Positions 24,388-39,283 of a DNA stretch of 64,000 nucleotides are shown here, piece after piece. Where the stretch lies: contig CALYLX010000126.1 of the NCBI GenBank assembly GCA_944990035.1, positions 2,480,001-2,544,000 on the forward strand, written 5' to 3'. This DNA comes from Clitopilus passeckerianus. Taxonomy: Eukaryota > Basidiomycota > Agaricomycetes > Agaricales > Entolomataceae. Position 1 is the first letter of the stretch. Each line of letters starts with the position of its first letter. Below the pieces are notes generated by a model, which saw nothing but the letters and a program-made list of their open reading frames with translations, had not been told where the DNA came from and ran no database searches. The translations under genes and the position numbers were made by a program.

Positions 24388-25683
24388 TCAGGCAGGTCTA
24401 ACCTTCCCCAGCCATGCGTTGATGTTAGAATACAGAGGTGGTGGCGGGTTACTGGCATCCGACTCCTCATACGTTCTATTGACACCTGAATACGTGGTTT
24501 GATGCATATGGAGAGGGGAATTCTGGGTGTCAGAACCTTGGGGACCTATTCACGAAATTAGTATGAGGTCGGCATATTCCATGTGGAAAATTGTTTCCAT
24601 ACGTGATAGGAACCTAAACATCTGAGATGGTGCCATTCTGTTGCGACGTCTTCGACGGTACCAGAATACACCGGCGACAATGAGGCCAATGAGAACGAAA
24701 GCCCCGATTACACCTCCTGCTATAGCTCCTGCAGAAGACTTGTGGGAACCTCCAGACTGGGATGTGGTTGAGGTAGGCTCGGATCCAGGGAATATAGTTG
24801 TGGTGACGACATAACCATCGCTATTAGTGAAGAGCGAAGTGTAAATGATAGTGGGCATGTCAGAGCTAACCGCCGAAGATTCAACAGGCGTAGGGGATAC
24901 TCCTTCCATGCTTTTGGAGGTAGCTGTAGGGAGAGGTGCGGTAACGGCTTCCGTAATGGTGGTAGTGAGTTCCGTCACTACTATAATGTTTGAGCTTGTC
25001 GAAGTACTAGGCGAGGTTGGCGACCTGGTGGGAGGTGGAGGCTGGTTCGTTGGGGTGGGTGAGTTCCTGCACGGGTTCGGTAGGCATATCAGTAGAATTG
25101 CCGGGAAAAGGAGGGGAACATGTACGTGGTTGGAGCCTGATCAGGTCCTGGCTCAATGGTGAAGGAAGGGCCTCTTGTATCGAGGGGTTTTCTAAAAACA
25201 AATTAATTTATATCAATCCGGAGAGAGTGAGCCTAAACCCACCCATTCACACTCATAGCAATGGTGTAGACTCTGTGTAGACCCTCAGCTTCTGAAAGCA
25301 TGTTGATACACTGAAAGAATGGACGTACGCTGGAGCCGGTGCGTTATTCACAGGCATGGTGGCCCTTTTGGGCCTCTGCGAGCTCACGTTTGGCATGAGC
25401 AGAATCAGCCTTCCATCGCTAGTGCGCAAGTTTATGTCGAATGCTGGAGGATCGCTCGTTTCGGCGCTCCATGAGACCACGATCTGGTCATTTTGGTGAA
25501 TAGTACTGCTTCCACTTGGGGTGACAACCGAGTTGACGATGACCACAGCCAACGAGTGGGTGTAAAGGAAGGATAAGAAACTAAAGGGCGCTTATTTGGT
25601 CAACGAACGCCCCAAAACGATGAAAACAGAACTCACAGGAGTGTACTAGGGTTGAACAGAGCAAACCAAGGTGCAGGACGCAT
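24388..25683 (-). CDS. tandem array copy A: KRE9/KNH-like single-pass membrane protein
   Basis: Most downstream of five paralogues. The signal exon (MRPAPWFALFNPSTLL) joins FLSFLYTHSLA. Then a KRE9/KNH-like beta domain (STIHQNDQIVVSWSAETSDP; FDINLRTSDGRLILLMPNV) continues over an intron as VYTIAMSVNG and GPSFTIEPG. A Ser/Thr/Pro stalk follows, then the juxtamembrane motif YTSLFTNSDGYVVTTTIF, one TM helix (GAIAGGVIGAFVLIGLIVAG then VFWYRRRRR), and a short tail ending PPPPLYSNINAWLGKVRPA. An apparent frame change before the stalk is explained by an intron with donor GTACATG. This copy lacks the cytoplasmic coiled coil of B-E. It is probably a surface protein; sensing or wall binding is inference from the domain order. 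Confidence 0.78.
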
Positions 25684-26287
25684 CCTGCTATGAGAAGTCA
25701 GTGGATTCAGCAACGACCATGAGCGGGGTGTCCAGGGTGTGCAGCAAGGCACTCTATCAGGTCCACTGACCCACTTTAGAGAGTTCCCACAGATTGGCAA
25801 AGATTTCTTGACATCAAGGTTCGATGAAGGGGCTGTAACATCACTTGATTCGACTTCGCATAATTCAATTGATGCCTTCAAAGTTCCGTTTGAGCGATCC
25901 GAGCGTTTATCCTACTAACCAACTGGGTCCCACACAACCGTGTCTGCCCGTAGGTCCTTGAGTGGACCATAGAATGGAACTAGTGCGAGGCGGTCACAGT
26001 GCTTGTAGATGCCAGGTAGGTGCTAAAGTTTGCAGGAAACATCCCCGACAGGATAAGTTCGTATTTGCTGAGACGTTGACAACCCAGGGGTCATAGGACA
26101 TGATGGTCGAGTCGAAGTCCAGTAGATATCGCTACCTGACGCCACGAATAGAATACCGCCGGACATCTTTACAGAACCCGACAATTGAATGGGTTGCAAA
26201 GGTCAACAACCACTATCTTGCCATTATCTAGATACCCTAATAAGCCCGTGTATAAAATGACAAACAGATAAAGTATATGTACAAAGA
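25684..26287. other. spacer between array copies A and B
   Basis: About 600 bases: promoter of copy A and 3' flank of copy B. A minus-strand frame at 25684-25881 upstream of A's signal exon is probably leader sequence. No other gene is seen. Confidence 0.4.
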
Positions 26288-27692
26288 CTATGGAACAGCG
26301 CTCTTGTGGAAGCTTATACGAGGGTGGTTGGGATCCTCAGCCCTCGGTGGTGTTTGACTCGACGTTGACGTGGGTTCGACATAGTCGGGTGCCATGACGC
26401 CATTAATAAGGAGCCTGCTCACAAGAGCCTCCTGCTGGTTTTCAAGAGCTTGGATACGCTCTTGAAGTTCGTGGTTTTCGCGCATTAGTCCTGAGGAGTC
26501 CCGAAAGGCACCAGACGATGGCGGTTCAGGCTGGCTCGCGAATGTGCGTTCTGGCATGATATGAGATGAGGTGGTGAGTGGCACAGGAACGGGGTGCACT
26601 TACCAGACTTGGTTTGAGAGTAGACTCGAACCAAGGACACAGCGGATTCACCAGAGGATCTCTTCCGTCGACGCAGGAGGAAGAAGACGACGATGATAAT
26701 TGCAATGAGAGCCAAAGCGCCAAGGACACCTCCTACAATAGCGCCAACTGGAACCTTTGAAGTGCCGTTACTGTTGGCACTGTCCTGGGAACCGGGCGAG
26801 GGCGTCGATAGAATGCTGGTGGTGTAAACTTGGCCGTTGCTGGTAAATGCGTACACGATCGTTGAGGCGCTTGGGCTTGTACGCTCCTCGCTGGCAATGC
26901 TTCGTGCTGTGGTTGAGACGGAAGTAGGTTCAGGGGACTGGCTTCTATTACCCTGAGATGAGGATGCGTTTTCAGGGAATTGTGTATTAGAGACTTGCGT
27001 CGTTGGTCCTGCATTATTAGACGTGGAAGTTGCAGGTGTGTTTGTATTCGGTACAGTTGTCTTCACCGTTACGGTCTGCTGGGCGGGAGGATTTCTAGAA
27101 TCTTGGGTTCAGCACGTTAAGGACTAGAGAGGAGGCGAGGTCGAGACTCACTTCGTGGTACTTGTAAGTTGACTACCAACAAAAAAGTACGGGCCATGAG
27201 TGAGTACGGAAAAGCTGATGGAACATGTCAAGAGTGTCGCAGAAAAGTAACAGCAACCCCACCTACCCTCTCACGTAGATACCGTTGGCGTACTGGCTAC
27301 AGAAATGGTCAGGGTCGTATTTTTTCTGCGGAATTCGTAGACTTACCCATTGGAGAGGCCAGCAGGCAAATCGAGGACTACTTCTCCCCAGGCCAGTTCA
27401 ATGTTGGGCCGTAGGAGTCCATGTGTGCCATCGAAATGGACGAGGTCTATATCAAAACTATCTGGATCACCAGATTCGGCTACCCAAGAGACCTTGATTT
27501 TGCCAGGTGACTGAATATTGTTACTTCCATCTTCCCCGTTAATGGTTGGGTTGAGCCGTATTGCAAAGGAATGAATGGGCGCCAACAAGGCCAATCTGTT
27601 TGAAACGCGGGGTGAATGGTTGCTCGGTGGTATCTTGTAGAGACTCACGAGAGTGCGAAGATTTTGCAGGCCAGTGGCATATGCGCTAGCAT
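26288..27692 (-). CDS. tandem array copy B: KRE9/KNH-like single-pass membrane protein
   Basis: Signal exon MLAHMPLACKIFALS joins LALLAPIHSFA. The extracellular beta domain is NPTINGEDGSNNIQSPGKIK, VSWVAESGDPDSFDIDL and LRPNIELAWGEVVLDLPAG, then GQYANGIYVRG. Then a long Ser/Thr/Asn-rich stalk, the motif STIVYAFTSNGQVYTTSIL, TM helix (VPVGAIVGGVLGALALIAII then IVVFFLLRRRKR) and a tail with a coiled coil (RENHELQERIQALENQQEAL) followed by the block LLINGVMAPDY shared with copy C. The frame is intact over all joins I checked. A TATA-like box lies about 85 bases upstream. The domain order resembles cell-wall stress sensors. It could equally be an adhesin or structural wall protein. Confidence 0.8.
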
Positions 27693-28497
27693 AGGAAGAT
27701 TCTAGTGAGGACGGAAATCATGACCTCGAGGAGAAACCGAGAAAGAAAAAGTCTGTGAATGTCACATCGGATGGCTTTATATCGCAAGGCATCGTAACTA
27801 GCGAAAATCCAGGGGTATCTCCTCCATTTCGATTTGGGCACCCAATTTGATGTTGTGATGAAGGACACCAAGCAATAGAAATTGCGACAACTCGCAGAAT
27901 TGATGACCGGGGAAGCGGTCCTGTGAAATTCTAGTTCGTTCGGTACCGCATCCTCGCCCTGAAAGACAGAAAGAACAGTAAATCGAACGCCCACGTCAAA
28001 CTTCATTAGCGCTGACTGCCAACACAGTACAAGGTCGGGAATGTGCCTGTGAGCCAAGCACTGAGCGTTTTTTCACCGACGACGCTTCACGAAGGCCAGA
28101 AGGATCCGCTCATCCAAATCAACATAATTCTGATAAGAAGATTGATTATTAGCCCGTTCGCTAAGAGATGTGAAGGTTTTCCTATGAAATCACATGTGTT
28201 TGTAGTTACAAGTAGATGGTCTGGAGACGGGCTGAGGTGAAACACCTAGCCATGGGCCATGAGATGGATGTCAAGAAAGAGGTCTGATTGCGCCATCAAT
28301 CCCAGATTCAGAAGTGATCCCTGACCATGTGTTGATACCTGGCCATTCATTTTTAGGAGCCTGATAAGTACGACCACAGGGACATATAATGTTATATTGC
28401 GGTAGTTCGGAATATAGTAATGCAATCTAGCGGTTGGGCGTAATAAACCCCACTGTAATAGTATACAACATGTCCAACATGGGTCCGATGCGATCTG
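27693..28497. other. spacer between array copies B and C
   Basis: About 0.8 kb. Contains the copy B promoter. Remaining frames have no domain character. Confidence 0.4.
27773..27785 (-). promoter_or_regulatory. TATA-like box of array copy B
   Basis: The minus strand reads GCGATATAAAGCC about 81-93 bases before the ATG at 27692. Confidence 0.5.
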
Positions 28498-29694
28498 CTA
28501 CCGGCGCGAGTCTGGTGTCAGAGGCGAGTCTAGTGTTGGGTGCAAGCTGTCTCCAGTTGCATCGTAGTCAGGCGCCATGACGCCGTTGATCAAAAGGCGG
28601 TTTTCAAGAGCGTGTTGCTGCGCCTCGAGTGCTCGTATCCGGTCTCTCAGCTCGTCGTTCTCCCGTACAAGCCCGGATGGAACCTTGGACGAAACCGTCG
28701 TGGCAGAGTCTTGTATGGTTGCGTGCGTGAGCGACACTTGTGATGCTGAAGGAGCTAGACAAATCAATGGTCAGGTAGAACAGAGATCAGAAAAAGAATT
28801 GCATACCGTGCCTCGTTTGTGGCCCAACCGTAGTAGGTGAAAAAGGGCTCACTACGGGTTCAGTGGTTGTCGTGGATCTTCTGCGACGCCGCAGGAGGAA
28901 CAGAATTATCCCTATGATTACGAGCAATGCCACGCCTCCAACTACACCTCCTACTATTGCGCCGACGGGTGCCTTCTTACCACCAGAAGCGGGCGCAGCC
29001 GTTGTCGACGGTGTTGCAGACACGGCTATGGTAGTCGTCTGCACTTGGCCATCGGTCGTGTAAACATACACAGTTGAAGCAGTCCCAGAGGTCCTAGAAC
29101 CAGACTCAGCACAATCAACCTTGATATCGTAGTGGCTACATACGAGGAACTGGGTGGTGGCAAAACAGTGAAGACGGGGCCGCGTGGAACGATAGGCTTT
29201 CTGCAAAGCGAATGTTGAGTCTCATGTGAATGCGAGCTTTTTGCAAGAACTGTACTTACCCAGCTTGGTATACGGCAATGTTGTATGGGCTATGAAAAGG
29301 TTAGAATCCTGAGATGCTAATTTTGAACATCATCCACGTACTCGGGAGGAACATTAGGCAAAGCCTGTGTCAAGCTTCCCCAATTGAGATCAACATTTGC
29401 TTTGAGGCCTGTGAGGCTCCGGTTCTTCCACACCAGACTGACATCAAAACCGAAGGGGTCTCCGGATTCTTTCTGCCAAGTGAACTTGATAAAGCTATCA
29501 GGGTATATGTTGCTGCTTCCATCGTCAGCATTAACCACGGGTCCCAGTTGCAGAGCTGAACATCTCGAGGGAATTAATCCAAAGATGTAACTGAAGAAGC
29601 CTCGGGATTAGTACGGACGTTCGCGTTATCTGTCCAACGAAGGTACGTACACGGCCGACAGGTAACCTACTACCTTCCAGTAGAACCCGAGCAT
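28498..29694 (-). CDS. tandem array copy C: KRE9/KNH-like single-pass membrane protein
   Basis: Signal exon MLGFYWKVVGYLSAV joins YIFGLIPSRCSALQLGPVV. Beta domain: NADDGSSNIYPDSFIKFTWQ, KESGDPFGFDVSLVWKN, LKANVDLNWGSLTQALPNVP. Then YNIAVYQAG and KPIVPRGPVFTVLPPP. A 54-nt intron with donor GTATGT restores frame into the stalk motif STVYVYTTDGQVQTTTIAVS. The TM helix (APVGAIVGGVVGGVALLVII then GIILFLLRRRRR) leads to a tail with coiled coil (RENDELRDRIRALEAQQHAL) and LLINGVMAPDY, nearly identical to copy B. All joins are in frame. Together with B this forms one subgroup, probably the best-preserved pair. Confidence 0.8.
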
Positions 29695-30803
29695 GGGGAT
29701 GTGCTCTGCAACACAGGTAGGCTTCTGTATAACGCGCGAGACGGTGAGGGGGCGAGAAGAGCGTTTGTAACGGCGAGCCAAGCGGTTTATATGACACCAT
29801 GTGGTGCTTCGGCGGCTGCTACATTTGGGCTTGGAATCAGGGCGTAACCGATTTATGGATGCTGTAAGGATCAAATAAAATCGGAAAAGTTGATCAGCAG
29901 CTCCTCTTGATAACCATGGAGTTGGCAGCCGTGAGATGTTCCTCATCTTCCACTACTAAAGGCTGGTCTAAACGCTTTCGTGGCCGTCGAATTGAACTCG
30001 GAGAAATATCGTAGATTGCACTAGAATCATGAGGATATCCGCAGTCGGAACGATTGATCCTGTTCTTGTGGAGACTACAGTTCGGACAAGGGAACTGACA
30101 GCCACCATAAAGGAGGAAAAGTCCGAAAATCATCTCCTTTTCAACTTGATTGGCACTGATTCCTTATCCTAAAATGGCTTGAAGATAGCAGATTTTTGAC
30201 CCCAGGCGTATGTCTGGCCCAGAACTTTCGGCGATCTCCTTTCGTTGTCCTGAATCTGATTCTGAGAAAATATTTGAGTGCAATTCTGAAAAGCTCCCAC
30301 GGCATGGTTTGTCAGCCTCACTCCAAAGACGCCCAAATTGGCACTGAAACCGTTTCAAATCAAGCACAGGGGCTTCTGGTTGGGAAAGTCTGCTGTTAAA
30401 GTCGCAAAAGTTGACCCCATTTGATCAATGACACTAGAGAAGCGTTGAATTTGGCCAAAATTTGGCGCAGCCGAAAACGTTCTTTCGTAAGCGTCGACGT
30501 ATTTCGTCTTCCTGAGCTTGAATCTGAAGTTGGTTTTCTCAAAAGTTCTTCCTTCGGAGGTAGCGACTTTGTTGAATTCGCTTGTTCGGAACTGTAAGCA
30601 ATTCTGAATCTCAAACTGATATGAAGATGTTGGCACTTTGATCATCGAGATGCGAGGGAAGAACTGCATGACAAGGATCTGCCCGAGTTCATCAATCCTC
30701 AAAACGGGATGTATCTTTGTCATCGAGTAAGATCACCCAAAAGCAACTTTTAGCTGAAGTTTGACCAGTTCCACTTGTATTCCCAAATTAAAGAGAACCA
30801 ACA
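29695..30803. other. gene-free insert within the array, between copies C and D
   Basis: About 1.1 kb, the longest spacer in the array. From about 30150 to 30720 it has a distinct texture: repeated variants of ctgaatctga/ttctgaa, two tttgacccca/gttgacccca blocks, and broken frames rich in Phe, Ser, Glu and Lys on the minus strand. I suspect an old inserted repeat but cannot name it, and no intact gene is present. Confidence 0.4.
29783..29794 (-). promoter_or_regulatory. TATA-like box of array copy C
   Basis: The minus strand reads TCATATAAACCG about 89-100 bases before the ATG at 29694, matching the spacing seen for copy B. Confidence 0.5.
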
Positions 30804-31893
30804 CTAATTATGACCGGAATATTCCCTGATCCATCGGTCCGAGTTACAGACGGTGTTCCACATGCGTTCGGCTCTTTGTTGCTGGGATAGGTTAGTAGGA
30901 GCTGGGGTCTCTGTGGGAGGTGTATACGCGGGTGGGGTGTTCAGTGTTGGCTCTAATGCACGCTCGAGTGCCCCAATCCTCTCGTTGAGAAGTTGGTTTT
31001 GCTGCATCAACATTTCGCGGTCGTTAGATTTTGCACCACCAGCCTCTGGACACCAATATGGCTCGTCAGATCAAGCATTACCATTGAACAGGGTGTCAAC
31101 GTACCGACAGAAGAAGGTCCTCCATCGAAAGGAGAGACCTCAGAGACCGGACTGTCAGATCCAGCTTTCCTCCGCCGGAAGAAACAAAATGCCAAAACAC
31201 CGATAATCACTAACAGACCTACTCCACCGACGATTCCGCCTATGAGAGCGCCGGGAGGAACCTTCTTGATACCGCTTGAACTGCTTGAGGTCGCGCCAGG
31301 GGTGTTTATGGTACTACTCGTAGGTGAACCAGAGGTCGAGGTTGAAGAGGATGATCCATCCGGCGTCACGGTGAAAGATGGTCCTTTGGGCACCACGGGG
31401 TTACTGTTGACAATCTCAAGTCAGACTGTAGTTGTGCAGAGGAATGAGAATAAATCTCCGTACCCAAAGACATAAACAGCAATGTTATAAACACTATTGT
31501 GTAGAGTCGATGATGAGGTCCATACAGAGAGACGGATAAAGGACGCACGCTGGGGCAGGAACGTTCCCCAGTTTGACAAGAGTTCTGGTCAAACTTCCGT
31601 CGACATCTGGTGCAATGGTTGTCAGATTCCCATTCGCCCATAGAAGGTCAATGTCGAATCTTGGCGGGTCGCCACTTTCGTTCGTCCAGGAGACCGTTAT
31701 CTCGTCATTGGGATGGATGACCGTGGAATTGGCTTAGAAACGACTGGGTTCAGTTTCAAGAGAGGGCTTGCAAGGGAAACAGCAGTAGACTACTGAAGAC
31801 ACGATCAGAAAACTGATTCTGGGTAAATGTATATCTGACGAAAGCTGAACTCACAAGAGTACGGAAGTGCGAAAGTGGACCAGCGGCATGCAT
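30804..31893 (-). pseudogene. tandem array copy D: KRE9/KNH-like membrane protein with apparent frameshift
   Basis: Signal part MHAAGPLSHFRTL joins STAVSLASPLLKLNPVVS. The beta domain follows (STVIHPNDEITVSWTNESGD; FDIDLLWANGNLTTIAPDVD; VKLGNVPAPA), but the frame of the signal part and that of the domain differ by one base at 31731-31735, and no intron signal explains it. Downstream parts are intact: PKGPSFTVTPDGSSSSTSTS, TM helix (GALIGGIVGGVGLLVIIGVL then AFCFFRRRK) and tail coiled coil (MLMQQNQLLNERIGALERAL). Read directly, translation would end soon after the signal peptide. This is either real inactivation or a single-base sequence error. The tail groups this copy with E, not with B or C. 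Confidence 0.65.
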
Positions 31894-32378
31894 TGGGTTC
31901 CGTTCCTCAACAGCCTTCCTGAGCGTCAATAAAAAGGCTGGGCAACTCGGTCTCAATAATGGAGGCCATCGACATGGTTTTGAAGCCCTGACTTGTTCAT
32001 CAGTCCGGTCAGACCGTTTCAGGGCACTGAGGAAGGCACAACGCCACCCATGGATCTTCCTCGACAAGTTGCGTGTTGACGCTACCTTCGCGATGGGCGC
32101 TGAAACTTTGCTGAGTTTTGCCATGACTTTGAGGTTTCGAGATGATAGTCTGGCGGAAGGTGTTGGGCTCAGGCTGTTTGGATACAGTACCAGGCTTCTG
32201 ATCAACGATTCCAGGCAATTACTCTGGAGCAAAGAGAATCGAGCATTTCGGTACGAACGACGATTATATTATCAATAGTATAATATAGATACAGGGACTC
32301 CATACAATCCAACCTACAGTCCACATAGTACAAGATCAGGGCAAGCGAGAAGCAGGACGCAATTGTGCAGTCGCATAA
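31894..32378. other. spacer between array copies D and E
   Basis: About 0.5 kb. Minus-strand frames at 31756-32232 overlap copy D's signal exon and have no further domain character. Confidence 0.4.
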
Positions 32379-33708
32379 TCAGGAGGTGCTTCTCCCCCAA
32401 CCTCCTTCAATATCCCTCTGCTGCGTCTCGAGGGCCAGAATCCTTTCGGCCAGTAGTTGATTTTGCTGCATGAGCAATGCTTCACGCTGCGTAGGTCCCT
32501 CGTATTGTTGAAGATGGGAAGCACGTTGATTCCGTAGGTCTGCTTGGAGAAGGTCCTGTTGTCGTTGAGCTTCCTCCCTCTCCCGGATAACAGCCTCCAA
32601 ACGGCCTATAGAAGAGAAATGAGAGATTAGAAGATGTCCACGTGCAGCTGTGGAAGAGAGTAAGTACCTTGCTTTTCAAATGGTTTGGCGCCTGTTTGAA
32701 TGGGCCGATTGAAGACCTCGTCCGCTAAGGCATCTGAGGATGTTGACTCCGAAACGCGTTTACGCCGTCGCAGGAGGATGAATGCAATGATGCAAATTGC
32801 GATAAGGATTATGCCACCACCAACAGCACCTCCTGCTATTGCGCCCGTCGGTTTTCTTCGCGGTGTTTGTAGATTGGTTATTTTGGTCTGGAGATGTGAC
32901 GCCACCAGTCCCACTTGACTGAATATTGCTTTCGGTAGAGGACGGCGCAAACGTGACAAGCGCAGTATTCGAGGACGATGCAAAGGTTTGAGTGTTTGAT
33001 GAAGCAGACCCTGTAGTAGCAGTAGACGAGGATTCTGTGGTCTGTGGTGCTTGGGTGCTTGGGGGTGGTGTTGATGTCGTGGCCGGTTTCGTTGTTGTTT
33101 CTGTTTTCTGGGTAGGACTACGCTTAGTTAGCTCCAGCAAGCAGACAAAACGCTAAAGCAGCTTACGAAGGAGCAGGAGCATTCGGAGAAGGAACCACAG
33201 AGAAGAGAGGACTTGTTCCTATCGCGGTTCTATAACGAGGGTGTGAGAATGATCGAGATGAACAAAAGCAGAGAACTGACCCAGAAACAAAGACTGCCAG
33301 GTTATATGATCTATCAAAACAAGTGTTAATTTGAAGCATGGTCTAGAGGGAAAAGTCCATTTACGCTGGTGCATCAATCTTCCCTACACTCCCCTCACAG
33401 TCCCAACGTTGATGTCGACGTTCGAAGCAAAGTACGTCAAAGCGTCTGTAGGCCACCAAATCATTATTGTAATCGTGTTAGGGTCACCACTCTCCTTCGT
33501 CCATGAGGCATAGATTTGACTGTCGGGATAGATAGGTGCATTCAACCCAGCTTGCGGGGTCACTGGGTCAAATCGAAGAGGGCAGGCGATGGGCAGGAAC
33601 GAGAGGATTCTAACATGTCATTAGTTCTGAGAATCGCAGCAAGATAATTTGAATTGTTACTCACAAAAATGAAGGTATCCACCACTCAAGTAGAGTAGGT
33701 GGCATCAT
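32379..33708 (-). pseudogene. tandem array copy E: decayed KRE9/KNH-like membrane protein
   Basis: The signal exon MMPPTLLEWWIPSFL joins ILSFLPIACPLRFDPVT. The beta domain reads NAPIYPDSQIYASWTKESGD, then runs into an in-frame TAG at 33384-33386. The expected end of the exon (GKIDAPA, before a GTAAAT donor) lies in another frame. A second frame change falls just before the TM helix, at an A4 run near 32852. A weak GTGGCG donor could remove it by splicing, but other copies have no intron there. The TM helix (GAIAGGAVGGGIILIAICII then AFILLRRRKR) and the tail coiled coil (LLMQQNQLLAERILALETQQ) are well preserved. Two independent disruptions make a pseudogene likely. Confidence 0.65.
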
Positions 33709-34561: not shown

Positions 34562-35606
<1,045 letters not shown>

Positions 35607-36200: not shown

Positions 36201-36667
36201 ATGGTCAAACGAGTTTGTCAGATTATCAAGGTATGTCTGCCATGTCGTTGATATCTGCACACATCTGCTGATCCATGCCTCCCAGTTGAAGCCTTCTGCG
36301 GTTGCGGAATACAAAGAAATTCACGCGGCCGTTTGGCCTGGAGTCCTGGCAGCAATTGAGCGTGCTAACATATATGACTACTCGATACATCACTATCCTG
36401 CCCTTCAGCTTTTGATCGCCAACTTCAAGTACGGCGGAGATGATTACGAAGGAGACATGAGGAAGGTCGCGGAAGATCCAGAGACGCAGAGATGGTGGAA
36501 GCTTACCGATGGGATGCAAGAAAGTTTCAACGAGGGTGCAGAGGGGAGCGGAAAAGATGTGCCATGGTGGACTGTCAGTTTTCGTTTCCTTCCCTTAATT
36601 GGGGTTTCCTCATGCTAATACGCTGCAACAGGAACTCGAAGAGGTATTTAGGTTTGAAGGTGCTTAA
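36201..36667 (+). CDS. L-rhamnose mutarotase family protein
   Basis: Interconverts alpha and beta anomers of L-rhamnose (YiiL/RhaM family, dimeric alpha-beta barrel). Three exons (36201-36230, 36286-36573, 36632-36667) give an exact 117-residue frame. Diagnostic pieces: MVKRVCQIIKLKPSAVAEYK, EIHAAVWPGVLAAIERANIY, YSIHHYPALQLLIANFKYGG, a segment like the family's D-x-A-x-x-DP (MRKVAEDPETQRWWKLTDGM) and the C-terminal PWWTELEEVFRFEG. The WW pairs and the catalytic-type His/Tyr positions are present. The size matches the bacterial enzyme plus a few residues. It points to use of rhamnose-containing sugars and lies next to two polysaccharide lyases. Confidence 0.87.
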
Positions 36668-38029
36668 GTCTCCATATGTTTGGGTCCAGGAGACATTCGC
36701 TTACTTTGTCATGATTTATTCACGTGTACGAAGCTTAACAAACACGGAATGTTTACTTACCACGGAGAACATTCAATTGGAAGGGTGATCCACCCATGAC
36801 ATTCGATGTAGCTCCAAAATGTTATCATCGATTGGATGCGAAGCTAAGGGCATTCTTCGCGCTCCAAAGTCAACATTTCTCCGAACACTCCACATTACGG
36901 AACCTTCTCCTTGAATGGATATATTCTCTGCTTGAAGTTCTAGAGATGGAATATACATGAACGATGAAATGAAGTGAGGGTTCGTCGCTGAGGTTTGGAA
37001 ACCATGCCGTGTAACCTTCGACATCTAAAGTAGTCTGGTTTCAAACGGTAAAATGCACCCTGGTGAACCCAAGTGTTGCAAACACCACGTTGCACTGGAA
37101 CTTTCCAGCCCTTTTATTGAGATGTCAAAACTGTCTTTGTTCACTGCCAGGTGGCGTCTGGGTATCCTTGTACCAATTCTGTTAGAGCTGATGAATTTTG
37201 GGCCAGATTCCGGTTAAATTTTGATGTTGCTACGCCAACTTGCCTCGTTTTGTGTCAGTTTTTTTGTTCCTTTTGTGCGACTATTCCTTTTTGTGTGATT
37301 TACATCTTTCTCTTGTTCCGCCAACCTGTTGTTGCCGGGCGGATGGCTCAGGTTGATTGTTCCCAATTCCTTGTCGAGGGCTATGCTTATCTCTGGGGCC
37401 AGAATATCTTACCGACGCCGGTGCCGACATTGGAAAACGTCCGTTCATGGACGTGGAGAAGAATGGAAGTCCTGAATACGCGAAATAAATGAGCTGTCGG
37501 CCTTATACTCGAGCCTCTGTGTGTTTTCAGCATCAGCATTAGGTTGTAGAATGCGATCGAGCAGCCTTCGATTGATGAAAACCATGCAGGTCCATCCATA
37601 ACATGATGTACACATATGTATCGCCCACCAACAACTCGAGGCTCGAGGTCAAAATATGCAGCCGAAATGGGGTTGAATAGGGTTCAATCTGCCAAATCAA
37701 TCGACTGAGGGAAGAAAACAACGATCTGTACAACTGCCGTCGGCTTCAACGGCCATTTTGGCAGAGATTTGACCTTCATGTGCAAACTTGATGGGGAATG
37801 CCAAGCCTACAGGATGTCCCTCGGAAAATTTCTGGCAATATGCCCTGTGGGGTAACGACAACAATCGTTTTATATATGGTTTTCGGCCATGTCAACTATT
37901 CTCATTCCTCCTTCCCTTCCTCCGCCCTTCTCTCCAATCCAATCGTTTCTTTCTCGGTTATCCAGATATTAGTCTTTCGTTTCAGGCTTGCCCAACGACT
38001 ACTATCTTTCCCCCATCCTGTCATTAACC
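36668..38029. other. gene-free region upstream of the PL14 lyase
   Basis: About 1.36 kb. A 113-codon frame at 37151-37492 is Phe/Cys-rich without motifs and is not called. A TATA-like element near 37868 belongs to the lyase promoter. Confidence 0.4.
37868..37878 (+). promoter_or_regulatory. TATA-like element of the PL14 gene
   Basis: Reads tttatatatgg about 152 bases upstream of the ATG at 38030. The leader between is CT-rich, as in highly expressed fungal promoters. Confidence 0.45.
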
Positions 38030-39283
38030 ATGTTCGCGACAAAAGCACTTTTTTTCCTGCTCGCAATTGCGCTTTATGCACAAGCCATGCCACATCACGG
38101 ACGTGCCTTCCCCAGTCACCACAGTCGTCCCACACGCCGCGGTTGCAAGCCTCATCCTCCCAAAGCTGCAGCTACAGCTGGTCACGATGTCAATGTCAAA
38201 GGCAATGCTGATGACGTGAAGCCTTCCGCTTCACCCTCCGCTTCACCTTCCGGCACCAAGCCCTCCAACGCGGCGCCTACTTCTGACGAGTCAAGCTCAT
38301 CATCATCGTCGAAAGGAAACTCCATAGGTGGTCTCCTTGGATCCCTGTTCCCCGTCTCTGGTTCCTCCAAGTCCTGGTCCACCTCGACTGCAGCCGAGAA
38401 GGCCTTTTCCTTGTCCGATTCCACCTTCCGCCCCACCAAGGTTCTCAAGGGCTTGTCTCACGACTACGTCTCTGCACCTGATGGCAAGAAGGCTATGAAG
38501 GCCCACTACCCCAAGGGATCGTACAACTTCGGTCACAATCCCATGGGTGGCTTCTCATTCTACGCACCTGGACCTTCAAACGTCGACCTGAGCACTGCCA
38601 AGGAGGCCACCTTCGGCTACTCTGTCTACTTCGGCAAGGACTTCGACTTCCAGCTCGGTGGCAAGCTTCCCGGCATTTGTGAGTACCTGCATGTTTTAAC
38701 GGTATGGATCAAATCTAATTTGTTTTCAACAGACGGTGGTGATGATGACGAAGTTGCTGTTTCTTGCTCTGGCGGACGTCGCGATTTCCGCTGCTTCTCT
38801 GCTCGCCTGATGTGGCGCGAGGATGGCAAGGGAGAGTTCTACACTTACCTCCCTGACTACACAAACTCCAAGTTCTCTGCCAACAAGAAGCTCTGCAGCG
38901 TCGCTCCTCAATCCGATTGTAACCCCACGTACGGTGCTTCCGTCGGTCGTGGTTCATTCCGCTTTGCTCGTGGCGCCTGGACTACCGTCAGCGAGCGTGT
39001 CAAGCTTAACTCTGCTGGCAAGGCTGACGGCGAGCTTGAACTCTTCGTTAACGGCAAGAGCGTCATCAACGTCAAAGGGCTCATCCTCAGGGATAGTGCT
39101 GCTGGAAGAATGCGTGGACTCCAGATGCAAACTTTCTTCGGAGGTTGGTACCACCATTTTCTCACTGAAAAATGTCAAACTGAGCTCGTTCCGCGTTTAG
39201 GTTCTCATCCCGAGTTTGCAACTCCCAAGGCACAGGATGTCTATTTCTCCGACTTTTCGGTTGCTATTACCGAAACCATCTAG
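38030..39283 (+). CDS. secreted polysaccharide lyase family 14 protein
   Basis: Beta-jelly-roll lyase acting by beta-elimination on uronic-acid polymers (alginate or glucuronan type). The signal peptide MFATKALFFLLAIALYAQAM is followed by a basic, then Ser/Pro-rich linker of about 85 residues. The catalytic domain then reads KAHYPKGSYNFGHNPMGGFS, ATFGYSVYFGKDFDFQLGGK, LPGI joined over an intron to YGGDDDEVAVSCSGGRRDFR, CFSARLMWR, CNPTYGASVGRGSFRFARGA, LELFVNGKSVINVKGL and RMRGLQMQTFFGG joined to SHPEFATPKAQDVYFSDFSV. Three exons. The long linker before the domain suggests attachment to the wall or an added spacer. Clean frame, strong codon bias towards C-ending codons, so probably well expressed. 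Confidence 0.9.
   Translation: MFATKALFFLLAIALYAQAMPHHGRAFPSHHSRPTRRGCKPHPPKAAATAGHDVNVKGNADDVKPSASPSASPSGTKPSNAAPTSDESSSSSSSKGNSIGGLLGSLFPVSGSSKSWSTSTAAEKAFSLSDSTFRPTKVLKGLSHDYVSAPDGKKAMKAHYPKGSYNFGHNPMGGFSFYAPGPSNVDLSTAKEATFGYSVYFGKDFDFQLGGKLPGICEYLHVLTVWIKSNLFSTDGGDDDEVAVSCSGGRRDFRCFSARLMWREDGKGEFYTYLPDYTNSKFSANKKLCSVAPQSDCNPTYGASVGRGSFRFARGAWTTVSERVKLNSAGKADGELELFVNGKSVINVKGLILRDSAAGRMRGLQMQTFFGGWYHHFLTEKCQTELVPRLGSHPEFATPKAQDVYFSDFSVAITETI

What the first reader, a model, noticed from the sequence alone, without database searches (positions are those of the whole stretch)
24388..33708. Five-copy tandem array of KRE9/KNH-domain, single-TM, coiled-coil-tail proteins
Five minus-strand paralogues follow each other with the same order: signal peptide split by an intron, KRE9/KNH-like beta domain, Ser/Thr stalk with a Y-x(n)-G-x-V-x-T-T motif, a Gly-rich TM helix (GAIxGG) and an Arg-rich stop, then a cytoplasmic tail. 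This is seen in the sequence. KRE9/KNH domains are known from wall-glucan assembly proteins and from agaric Ser/Thr-rich anchored proteins. The join to a TM plus coiled-coil tail resembles Wsc/Mid2 wall sensors. That the array is a receptor or self/non-self surface family evolving by birth and death is inference.
Basis: partly seen in the sequence, partly recalled or inferred. Interest (0 to 1): 0.75.

Follow-up and report, generated by a model that had tools for sequence, protein, structure and literature searches.

The report
Mushroom KNH surface proteins, PPxY tails
A mushroom chromosome carries five neighbouring genes for wall-facing, once-through-the-membrane proteins whose inner tails end in a short motif of the kind that ubiquitin ligases grip, and many other surface proteins of this fungus end the same way, which points to a shared and testable way of controlling what sits on its surface.

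Summary
The array is real: five minus-strand genes, each with its own ATG, an intron inside the signal peptide, a 30-nt micro-exon, a beta domain, a Ser/Thr stalk, a Gly-rich TM and an Arg stop. Corrections: in the window, copies 1 and 2 are frame-broken, but the genome also holds two haplotigs (C23, C22) in which 9 of 10 frames are open; the window here is a phase-switched consensus of the two. None of the five reaches Pfam's KNH cut-off; homology rests on same-genome paralogues that do and on a confident Ig/FN3-like model. The coiled coil is in four of five copies, the stalk motif in three. New: every tail carries PPxY or APDY, behind a coiled coil in c1-c4, and a C-terminal PPxY recurs on single-pass proteins with other ectodomains in this genome, which also has two WW+HECT (Rsp5/NEDD4-type) loci. 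Best reading: wall-facing KNH proteins whose surface level is set by a WW-domain ubiquitin ligase gripping a membrane array of PY motifs. The ligase step is inferred. Self/non-self diversification is not supported: both haplotypes carry the same five genes, and the KNH domain is the most constrained part (allelic dN/dS 0.07).

The parts
32336..33708 (-). Copy c1: exons 33708-33665, 33609-33365, 33310-33281, 33229-33167, 33117-32668, 32605-32336. Frame-broken three times in the window; open (367 and 368 aa) in haplotigs C23 and C22. TM 32845-32756; first helix 32597-32535; second helix 32477-32427; APPDY 32389-32375
30804..31893 (-). Copy c2: five exons, 31893-31855 (a second ATG lies 4 nt in), 31792-31549, 31493-31464, 31403-31105, 31045-30804. 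Frame-broken in the window between signal peptide and beta domain and again near the 3' end; open in C23 (277 aa), one break in C22. TM 31252-31166; coiled coil 31013-30963; TPPAY 30938-30924
28498..29694 (-). Copy c3, intact, 307 aa: exons 29694-29651, 29590-29342, 29289-29260, 29200-29144, 29093-28807, 28754-28498. KNH 29553-29158; TM 28963-28877; coiled coil 28671-28591; APDY 28575-28564
26288..27680 (-). Copy c4, intact, 375 aa: exons 27680-27649, 27595-27347, 27296-27267, 27214-27152, 27094-26604, 26550-26288. KNH 27561-27172; TM 26745-26659; coiled coil 26488-26408; APDY 26392-26381
24388..25683 (-). Copy c5, intact, 338 aa: exons 25683-25637, 25580-25329, 25272-25243, 25191-25126, 25066-24603, 24545-24388. 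KNH 25546-25149; TM 24729-24637; no coiled coil; PPLY 24441-24430
30078..30594 (.). Insertion of about 517 bp in the c2-c3 spacer, present in window and C22, absent from C23; a 78% identical relative lies at C23:135852-136439. Not part of the mechanism

Best explanation
The array encodes type I single-pass plasma-membrane proteins that put a Kre9/KNH-like Ig/FN3-type beta domain on a glycosylated Ser/Thr stalk into or next to the wall, and carry a short cytoplasmic tail with a self-associating coiled coil (lost in c5) and a PY motif (PPxY in c1, c2, c5; APDY in c3, c4). I propose that the PY motif is read by the WW domains of an Rsp5/NEDD4-type ubiquitin ligase: when the ectodomains are gathered by wall glycan or by each other, the tails form a membrane-bound PY array that activates the ligase, which ubiquitinates the protein itself or neighbours and so sets surface residence and turnover of wall-contact proteins. 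Shown: gene structure, domain order, homology of the beta domain, helical tail followed by PY motif, constraint, recurrence of C-terminal PPxY on other single-pass proteins of the genome, presence of WW+HECT genes. Inferred: membrane topology and glycosylation, oligomerisation, binding of WW domains, ubiquitination, the trigger and the ligand.
Against: No binding, ubiquitination or expression data. The PPxY background is not rare: PMC5892558 says 22% of yeast ORFs match (PLAVI)PXY, half of them PPXY or LPXY, so position, not mere presence, is the argument; the 136-frame control is mechanical frames, mostly not genes. c3 and c4 carry APDY, weaker than canonical. Other WW proteins than the HECT ligases exist in the genome (one search lists 22 WW matches). 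Tail dN/dS (0.18) is higher than that of KNH. Tails hold few lysines (1, 3, 1 in c3, c4, c5). Coiled-coil oligomer state untested; pTM of the tail model is low. KNH scores of the window copies are below Pfam's cut-off. No homologue was found in 2 protein database searches, so conservation beyond this genome is unknown.
Confidence: 0.5

Rival explanations
1. Wall-stress sensors in the manner of Wsc/Mid2: the stalk acts as a spring, the tail signals to a Rho GEF, and the PY motif only serves routine turnover.
For: Ser/Thr stalk (39-41% S/T in c3-c5), Gly-rich TM, Arg stop, cytoplasmic tail; weak Mid2 lines for c3 and c2.
Against: Mid2 far below cut-off (13.6 and 11.8 against 23.2), no WSC domain listed; the conserved tail core is coiled coil plus PY, not a recognised GEF-binding motif.
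Confidence: 0.2
2. Structural wall-glucan proteins: the KNH domain acts in beta-glucan assembly as Kre9/Knh1 do, the TM merely anchors them, and the tails are neutral.
For: KNH domain is the most constrained region (dN/dS 0.068); a Kre9/Knh1-family gene is strongly induced at primordium formation in Flammulina (PMC7567395, passage).
Against: Tail core conserved down to a distant cluster; no C-terminal Kre9/Knh1 family listed by hmmscan; KNH similarity weak.
Confidence: 0.17
3. Receptor or self/non-self recognition family that diversifies by birth and death.
For: Tandem duplication and a second cluster; copies are divergent (KNH identity to c3 of 30-39%).
Against: Same five genes in both haplotypes; strongest constraint on the would-be recognition domain; array divergence close to the flanks. 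Only two alleles.
Confidence: 0.06
4. C-terminal PPxY is a by-product of shared ancestry and proline-rich tails of basidiomycete TM proteins and has no common reader.
For: Some tails are related to each other; PY-like motifs are common in fungal ORFs.
Against: Tails fall in clearly different classes (coiled coil plus PPxY; HHxDSGxR plus PPxY; others) yet end alike, while reversed and altered motifs are absent or rare at that place.
Confidence: 0.07

Closest known systems
Kre9/KNH-like N-terminal Ig-like domain proteins (PF10342), often called Ser-Thr-rich GPI-anchored
   Same: Secreted beta domain with W..ESGDP core followed by a Ser/Thr stalk; same-genome paralogues pass the Pfam cut-off.
   Different: Window copies score below the cut-off; a TM and cytoplasmic tail in place of a GPI anchor.
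Kre9 and Knh1 of Saccharomyces
   Same: Distant likeness of the N-terminal domain only.
   Different: Those are soluble wall-assembly proteins with a second, C-terminal family domain (recalled); no such family listed here.
Mid2 and Wsc wall-stress sensors
   Same: Layout: ectodomain, Ser/Thr stalk, one TM, short tail.
   Different: Mid2 below cut-off, no WSC listed; coiled coil plus PY tail.
Single-pass membrane PY proteins of the Rsp5 system: Rcr1/Rcr2, Sna3, Ear1, Ssh4
   Same: Membrane protein with cytoplasmic PPxY-like motif; Rcr1 uses VPEY and PPSY (PMC5578492, passages), Sna3 binds Rsp5 by PPXY (PMC2171029, abstract).
   Different: KNH ectodomain with stalk and a coiled coil; no SPRY line (Ear1/Ssh4) in hmmscan; interaction untested here; Sna3 is not single-pass by my recall.

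Membership tests
Pfam PF10342 Kre9_KNH | Score at or above the curated cut-off (24.6 bits) | tested here: not met
   0 of 5 window copies: c2 17.1, c5 17.2, c1, c3, c4 no line. Paralogues at C25/C125:2.74 Mb pass
Pfam PF10342 Kre9_KNH | Homology to accepted members | tested here: met
   Reciprocal profile searches with paralogues; c1 is marginal at E 0.0028
Pfam PF10342 Kre9_KNH | Ig-like beta sandwich | tested here: met
   AF2 of the c3 KNH exon pLDDT 89.1, all beta; FN3/Ig rows lead but weakly. The last two strands lie on later exons and were not in the model
Ser-Thr-rich GPI-anchored type of PF10342 | C-terminal GPI signal, no cytoplasmic tail | tested here: not met
   TM followed by RRRR and a tail of about 60 to 120 residues; no GPI predictor was run
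Kre9/Knh1 proper | C-terminal Kre9/Knh1 family domain | tested here: not met
   Not among Pfam lines at E <= 10; the family's existence is recalled
Mid2/Wsc sensors | Mid2 (PF04478) or WSC domain | tested here: not met
   Mid2 13.6 and 11.8 bits against 23.2; WSC not listed
Rsp5/NEDD4 PY adaptor or cargo | PPxY or accepted variant in a cytoplasmic tail | tested here: met
   PPDY, PPAY, PPLY in c1, c2, c5; APDY in c3, c4; cytoplasmic side inferred from the Arg stop
Rsp5/NEDD4 PY adaptor or cargo | Binds WW domains of the ligase; ubiquitinated | not testable with these tools
   -
Rsp5/NEDD4 PY adaptor or cargo | A WW+HECT ligase in the same genome | tested here: met
   Two loci with three WW matches followed by HECT

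The most novel reading that the evidence does not exclude
In this mushroom, and perhaps in agarics at large, a C-terminal PPxY is a common cytoplasmic port of single-pass mucin-like surface proteins: many different ectodomains (KNH, a DYLxLEP-type domain, stalk-only) sit on tails that end in the same WW ligand, so that one ubiquitin-ligase circuit with array sensing would control the cell-surface repertoire facing the wall.
Probability: 0.33. Interest if true: 0.75.

Novelty: new variant of a known kind. Interest (0 to 1): 0.48.

Why it matters
PF10342 proteins are usually listed as GPI-anchored wall proteins. Here is a clustered branch with a TM and a conserved coiled-coil plus PY tail, in a genome where C-terminal PPxY recurs on many other surface proteins. 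If the PY motif is read by a WW-HECT ligase, it gives mushroom wall biology a concrete handle: one E3 that tunes which wall-contact proteins stay on the surface, testable by peptide binding and by a single motif change. It also warns that two of the five genes look dead only because the assembly mixes two haplotypes.

Tried and rejected
Protein database searches: c4 whole (7997 candidates scored, none at E <= 0.001) and c2 residues 20-122 (31 candidates, none at E <= 10); I read this as a database poor in fungi, which I did not test. PDB by sequence with the c2 KNH domain: three weak lines (4cua E 0.069, 9yhq 0.84, 1uxa 0.93), not used. A whole-array DNA search in the own genome returned only an unrelated spacer match and missed the haplotigs, which the protein search then showed. 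A real-pseudogene reading of c1 and c2 was considered and dropped: in 8971 aligned columns the window has 1 private substitution against 236 for C23 and 459 for C22, and 29 window-only gaps (28 of 1-2 bp) against no window-only insertion (exon borders of c1 were preliminary there); at 746 sites where the haplotigs differ it equals C23 at 480, C22 at 264, neither at 2. Against a pure error reading: none of these gaps falls in c3-c5 coding sequence. Literature: terms 'ppxy, rsp5, single-pass transmembrane, fungi, cell wall sensor' (at least 4 of 5) gave 0 papers; 'ppxy motif, basidiomycete, transmembrane' gave 0; 'ser-thr-rich, kre9, transmembrane, agaricomycetes' (at least 3 of 4) gave 4, of which I saw a passage of one, PMC10406608, and the listing of the rest; one search listed 20 of 385, no title on mushrooms. 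So I found no prior report in these open-licence papers, which is not proof of absence. Dropped rows: in the allelic dN/dS, c2 was compared over 195 codons up to the break in C22.

Full report
Setting. The window is G000:C125:2480001-2544000 of a 64.8 Mb, 160-contig assembly.

Gene models. Reading the minus strand and splicing at GT..AG borders gives five genes in head-to-tail order. c3 (307 aa), c4 (375 aa) and c5 (338 aa) are open in the window. c1 and c2 are not: c1 changes frame three times, c2 twice between signal peptide and beta domain, with two further window-only gaps near its 3' end. All five have a signal-peptide intron in phase 2 and a third exon of exactly 30 nt; c1, c3, c4, c5 have six exons, c2 five. 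No transcript evidence was available, so splice sites are predictions.

Haplotypes. A protein search of the own genome shows the same array at C23 (about 22.9-31.4 kb) and C22 (about 116.8-125.9 kb) (fetched). Whole-array identity to the window is 98.0% and 92.6% (two blocks) for C23 and 92.8% for C22; C23 to C22 91.3% and 86.4%. At 746 sites where the haplotigs differ the window follows C23 at 480, C22 at 264 and neither at 2, in short alternating runs. Left of the array (window 7.3-12.7 kb) the window is 99.8% C23 and 91.5% C22; right of it (36.6-42.2 kb) 99.1% C22 and 95.0% C23. So C125 changes phase across the array and is a mixture of both there. In the haplotigs 9 of 10 frames are open, the exception being c2 of C22. 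I conclude that the breaks of c1 and c2 in the window are assembly effects; that no window-only gap lies in c3-c5 coding sequence is a point against a uniform error and is not explained.

Tails. In c1-c4 the tail holds a helix with RIxxLE followed by a PY-like motif: APPDY, TPPAY, MAPDY, MAPDY; c5 has no helix but ends near PPPLY. The second cluster on the same contig (C125:2.717 and 2.745-2.749 Mb; alleles on C25) has KNH exons, TM and tails ending in PPPDY, SPPEY, PPPNY, PPPQY. A KNH-less stalk protein at C97:480 kb with a near-identical partner at C157:645 kb has RI(I/V)ELEAQQRDL and PPRY. In eight aligned tails R, I, L, E, Q, P, Y are invariant. AF2 of the C23 c1 tail: helices 2-33 and 40-71, then coil; pLDDT 77.5, pTM 0.35.

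Genome-wide tails. A stalk-TM query lists 120 matches (counts are lower bounds). I fetched 16 of them downstream of the TM, chosen from the upper part of the list outside the array and outside loci already held, so they are not a random sample. In 11 of 16 the frame with the TM ends with PPxY in the last 30 aa; in 3 more (L083, L086, L092) a later frame has PPxY; L094 and L096 show none. YxPP 0 of 16; other PPx-letter controls at that place 0 or 1. In 136 window frames of 100 aa or more PPxY stands in the last 30 aa in none. With nine earlier loci and near-identical ones grouped, 13 of 19 groups have it in the TM frame; L028 was mis-read in that script (its frame ends PPVYR), L030/L096 have PPPY in a later frame of L030, L032 and L094 none. 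PMC5892558 (discussion read) notes that PY-like motifs occur in 22% of yeast ORFs, so the case rests on position and recurrence.

Reader of the motif. The genome has 22 WW matches at E <= 1, 17 of them over the cut-off, including two places with three strong WW matches (C125:1979634-1980217, C139:1183235-1183728) directly followed by HECT matches, the NEDD4/Rsp5 layout. PMC2810449 (passages) states that Rsp5's three WW domains recognise PPXY or LPXY and lists membrane adaptors Bsd2, Tre1/2, Ear1, Ssh4 and possibly Rcr1/2. PMC5578492 (passages) reports VPEY and PPSY in Rcr1, VPEY binding Rsp5, and that Rsp5 is not needed for Rcr1's role in chitin deposition, which cuts against too direct a wall analogy. 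PMC2171029 (abstract) shows PPXY-dependent Rsp5 binding of Sna3. PMC5892558 (abstract and discussion) shows that clustered or membrane-tethered PY arrays, not single soluble motifs, activate these ligases. A coiled-coil, membrane-anchored PY tail fits that requirement; this fit is inference.

Selection. Between C23 and C22, NG86 dN/dS is 0.068 for KNH (54 syn, 13 nonsyn), 0.28 signal peptide, 0.18 stalk, 0.18 TM plus tail, 0.15 overall, dS 0.16; by gene, c4 is highest at 0.37 (stalk 0.86 on 2 and 5 changes). Fisher p for KNH against stalk plus TM and tail 0.027, against all else 0.0097 (counts rounded). That is purifying selection on the outer domain and gives no sign of diversifying recognition, with the limit that only two alleles were seen.

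Literature on the ectodomain. PMC4649063 (passages) labels PF10342 'Ser-Thr-rich GPI-anchored'. PMC7567395 (one passage) lists a Kre9/Knh1-family gene among the genes most induced in Flammulina primordia. PMC10406608 (one passage) lists Kre9/Knh1 among fungal wall novelties. None describes TM-plus-PY members in what I saw.

Verdict. The most useful new element is the conserved PY tail and its recurrence across surface proteins.

Noticed in passing
G000 loci L017, L020, L025, L026, L034, L084, L085, L088, L090, L091, L095, L097: Another class of single-pass proteins carries an HHxDSGxR-like stretch (L017 has DTG; L091 DSGER; L084 DSGAR) some 15-25 residues before the C-terminal PPxY. DSG recalls a phosphodegron, from memory only.
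   Followed up: partly
G000:C125:1979634-1981526 and C139:1181931-1183728: Two WW-HECT (Rsp5/NEDD4-type) loci on different long contigs; yeast has one Rsp5. Whether they are paralogues or alleles was not tested.
   Followed up: no
window 7258-42211 against C22 and C23: The window contig switches haplotype phase: like C23 on the left, like C22 on the right, a mixture across the array. Haplotypes differ by about 5-9% in the flanks compared.
   Followed up: yes
window 30078-30594: About 517 bp insertion in the c2-c3 spacer, in window and C22, not in C23, with a 78% identical relative on C23 at 136 kb; looks like a small dispersed element.
   Followed up: partly
window 34565-35600 (-): Rab-type GTPase gene next to the array (by eye from the frames), with the GTPase region apparently open.
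   Followed up: no
window 36202-36618 (+): Frame that looks like an L-rhamnose mutarotase-type protein (by eye, recalled family).
   Followed up: no
window 37973-39283 (+): 436-aa secreted-looking frame that resembles a fungal polysaccharide lyase (by eye, recalled).
   Followed up: no
G000:C97:480 kb and C157:645 kb: KNH-less stalk-TM protein with the same RIIELEAQQ plus PPRY tail as the array, on two contigs: the tail module can sit on another ectodomain.
   Followed up: yes
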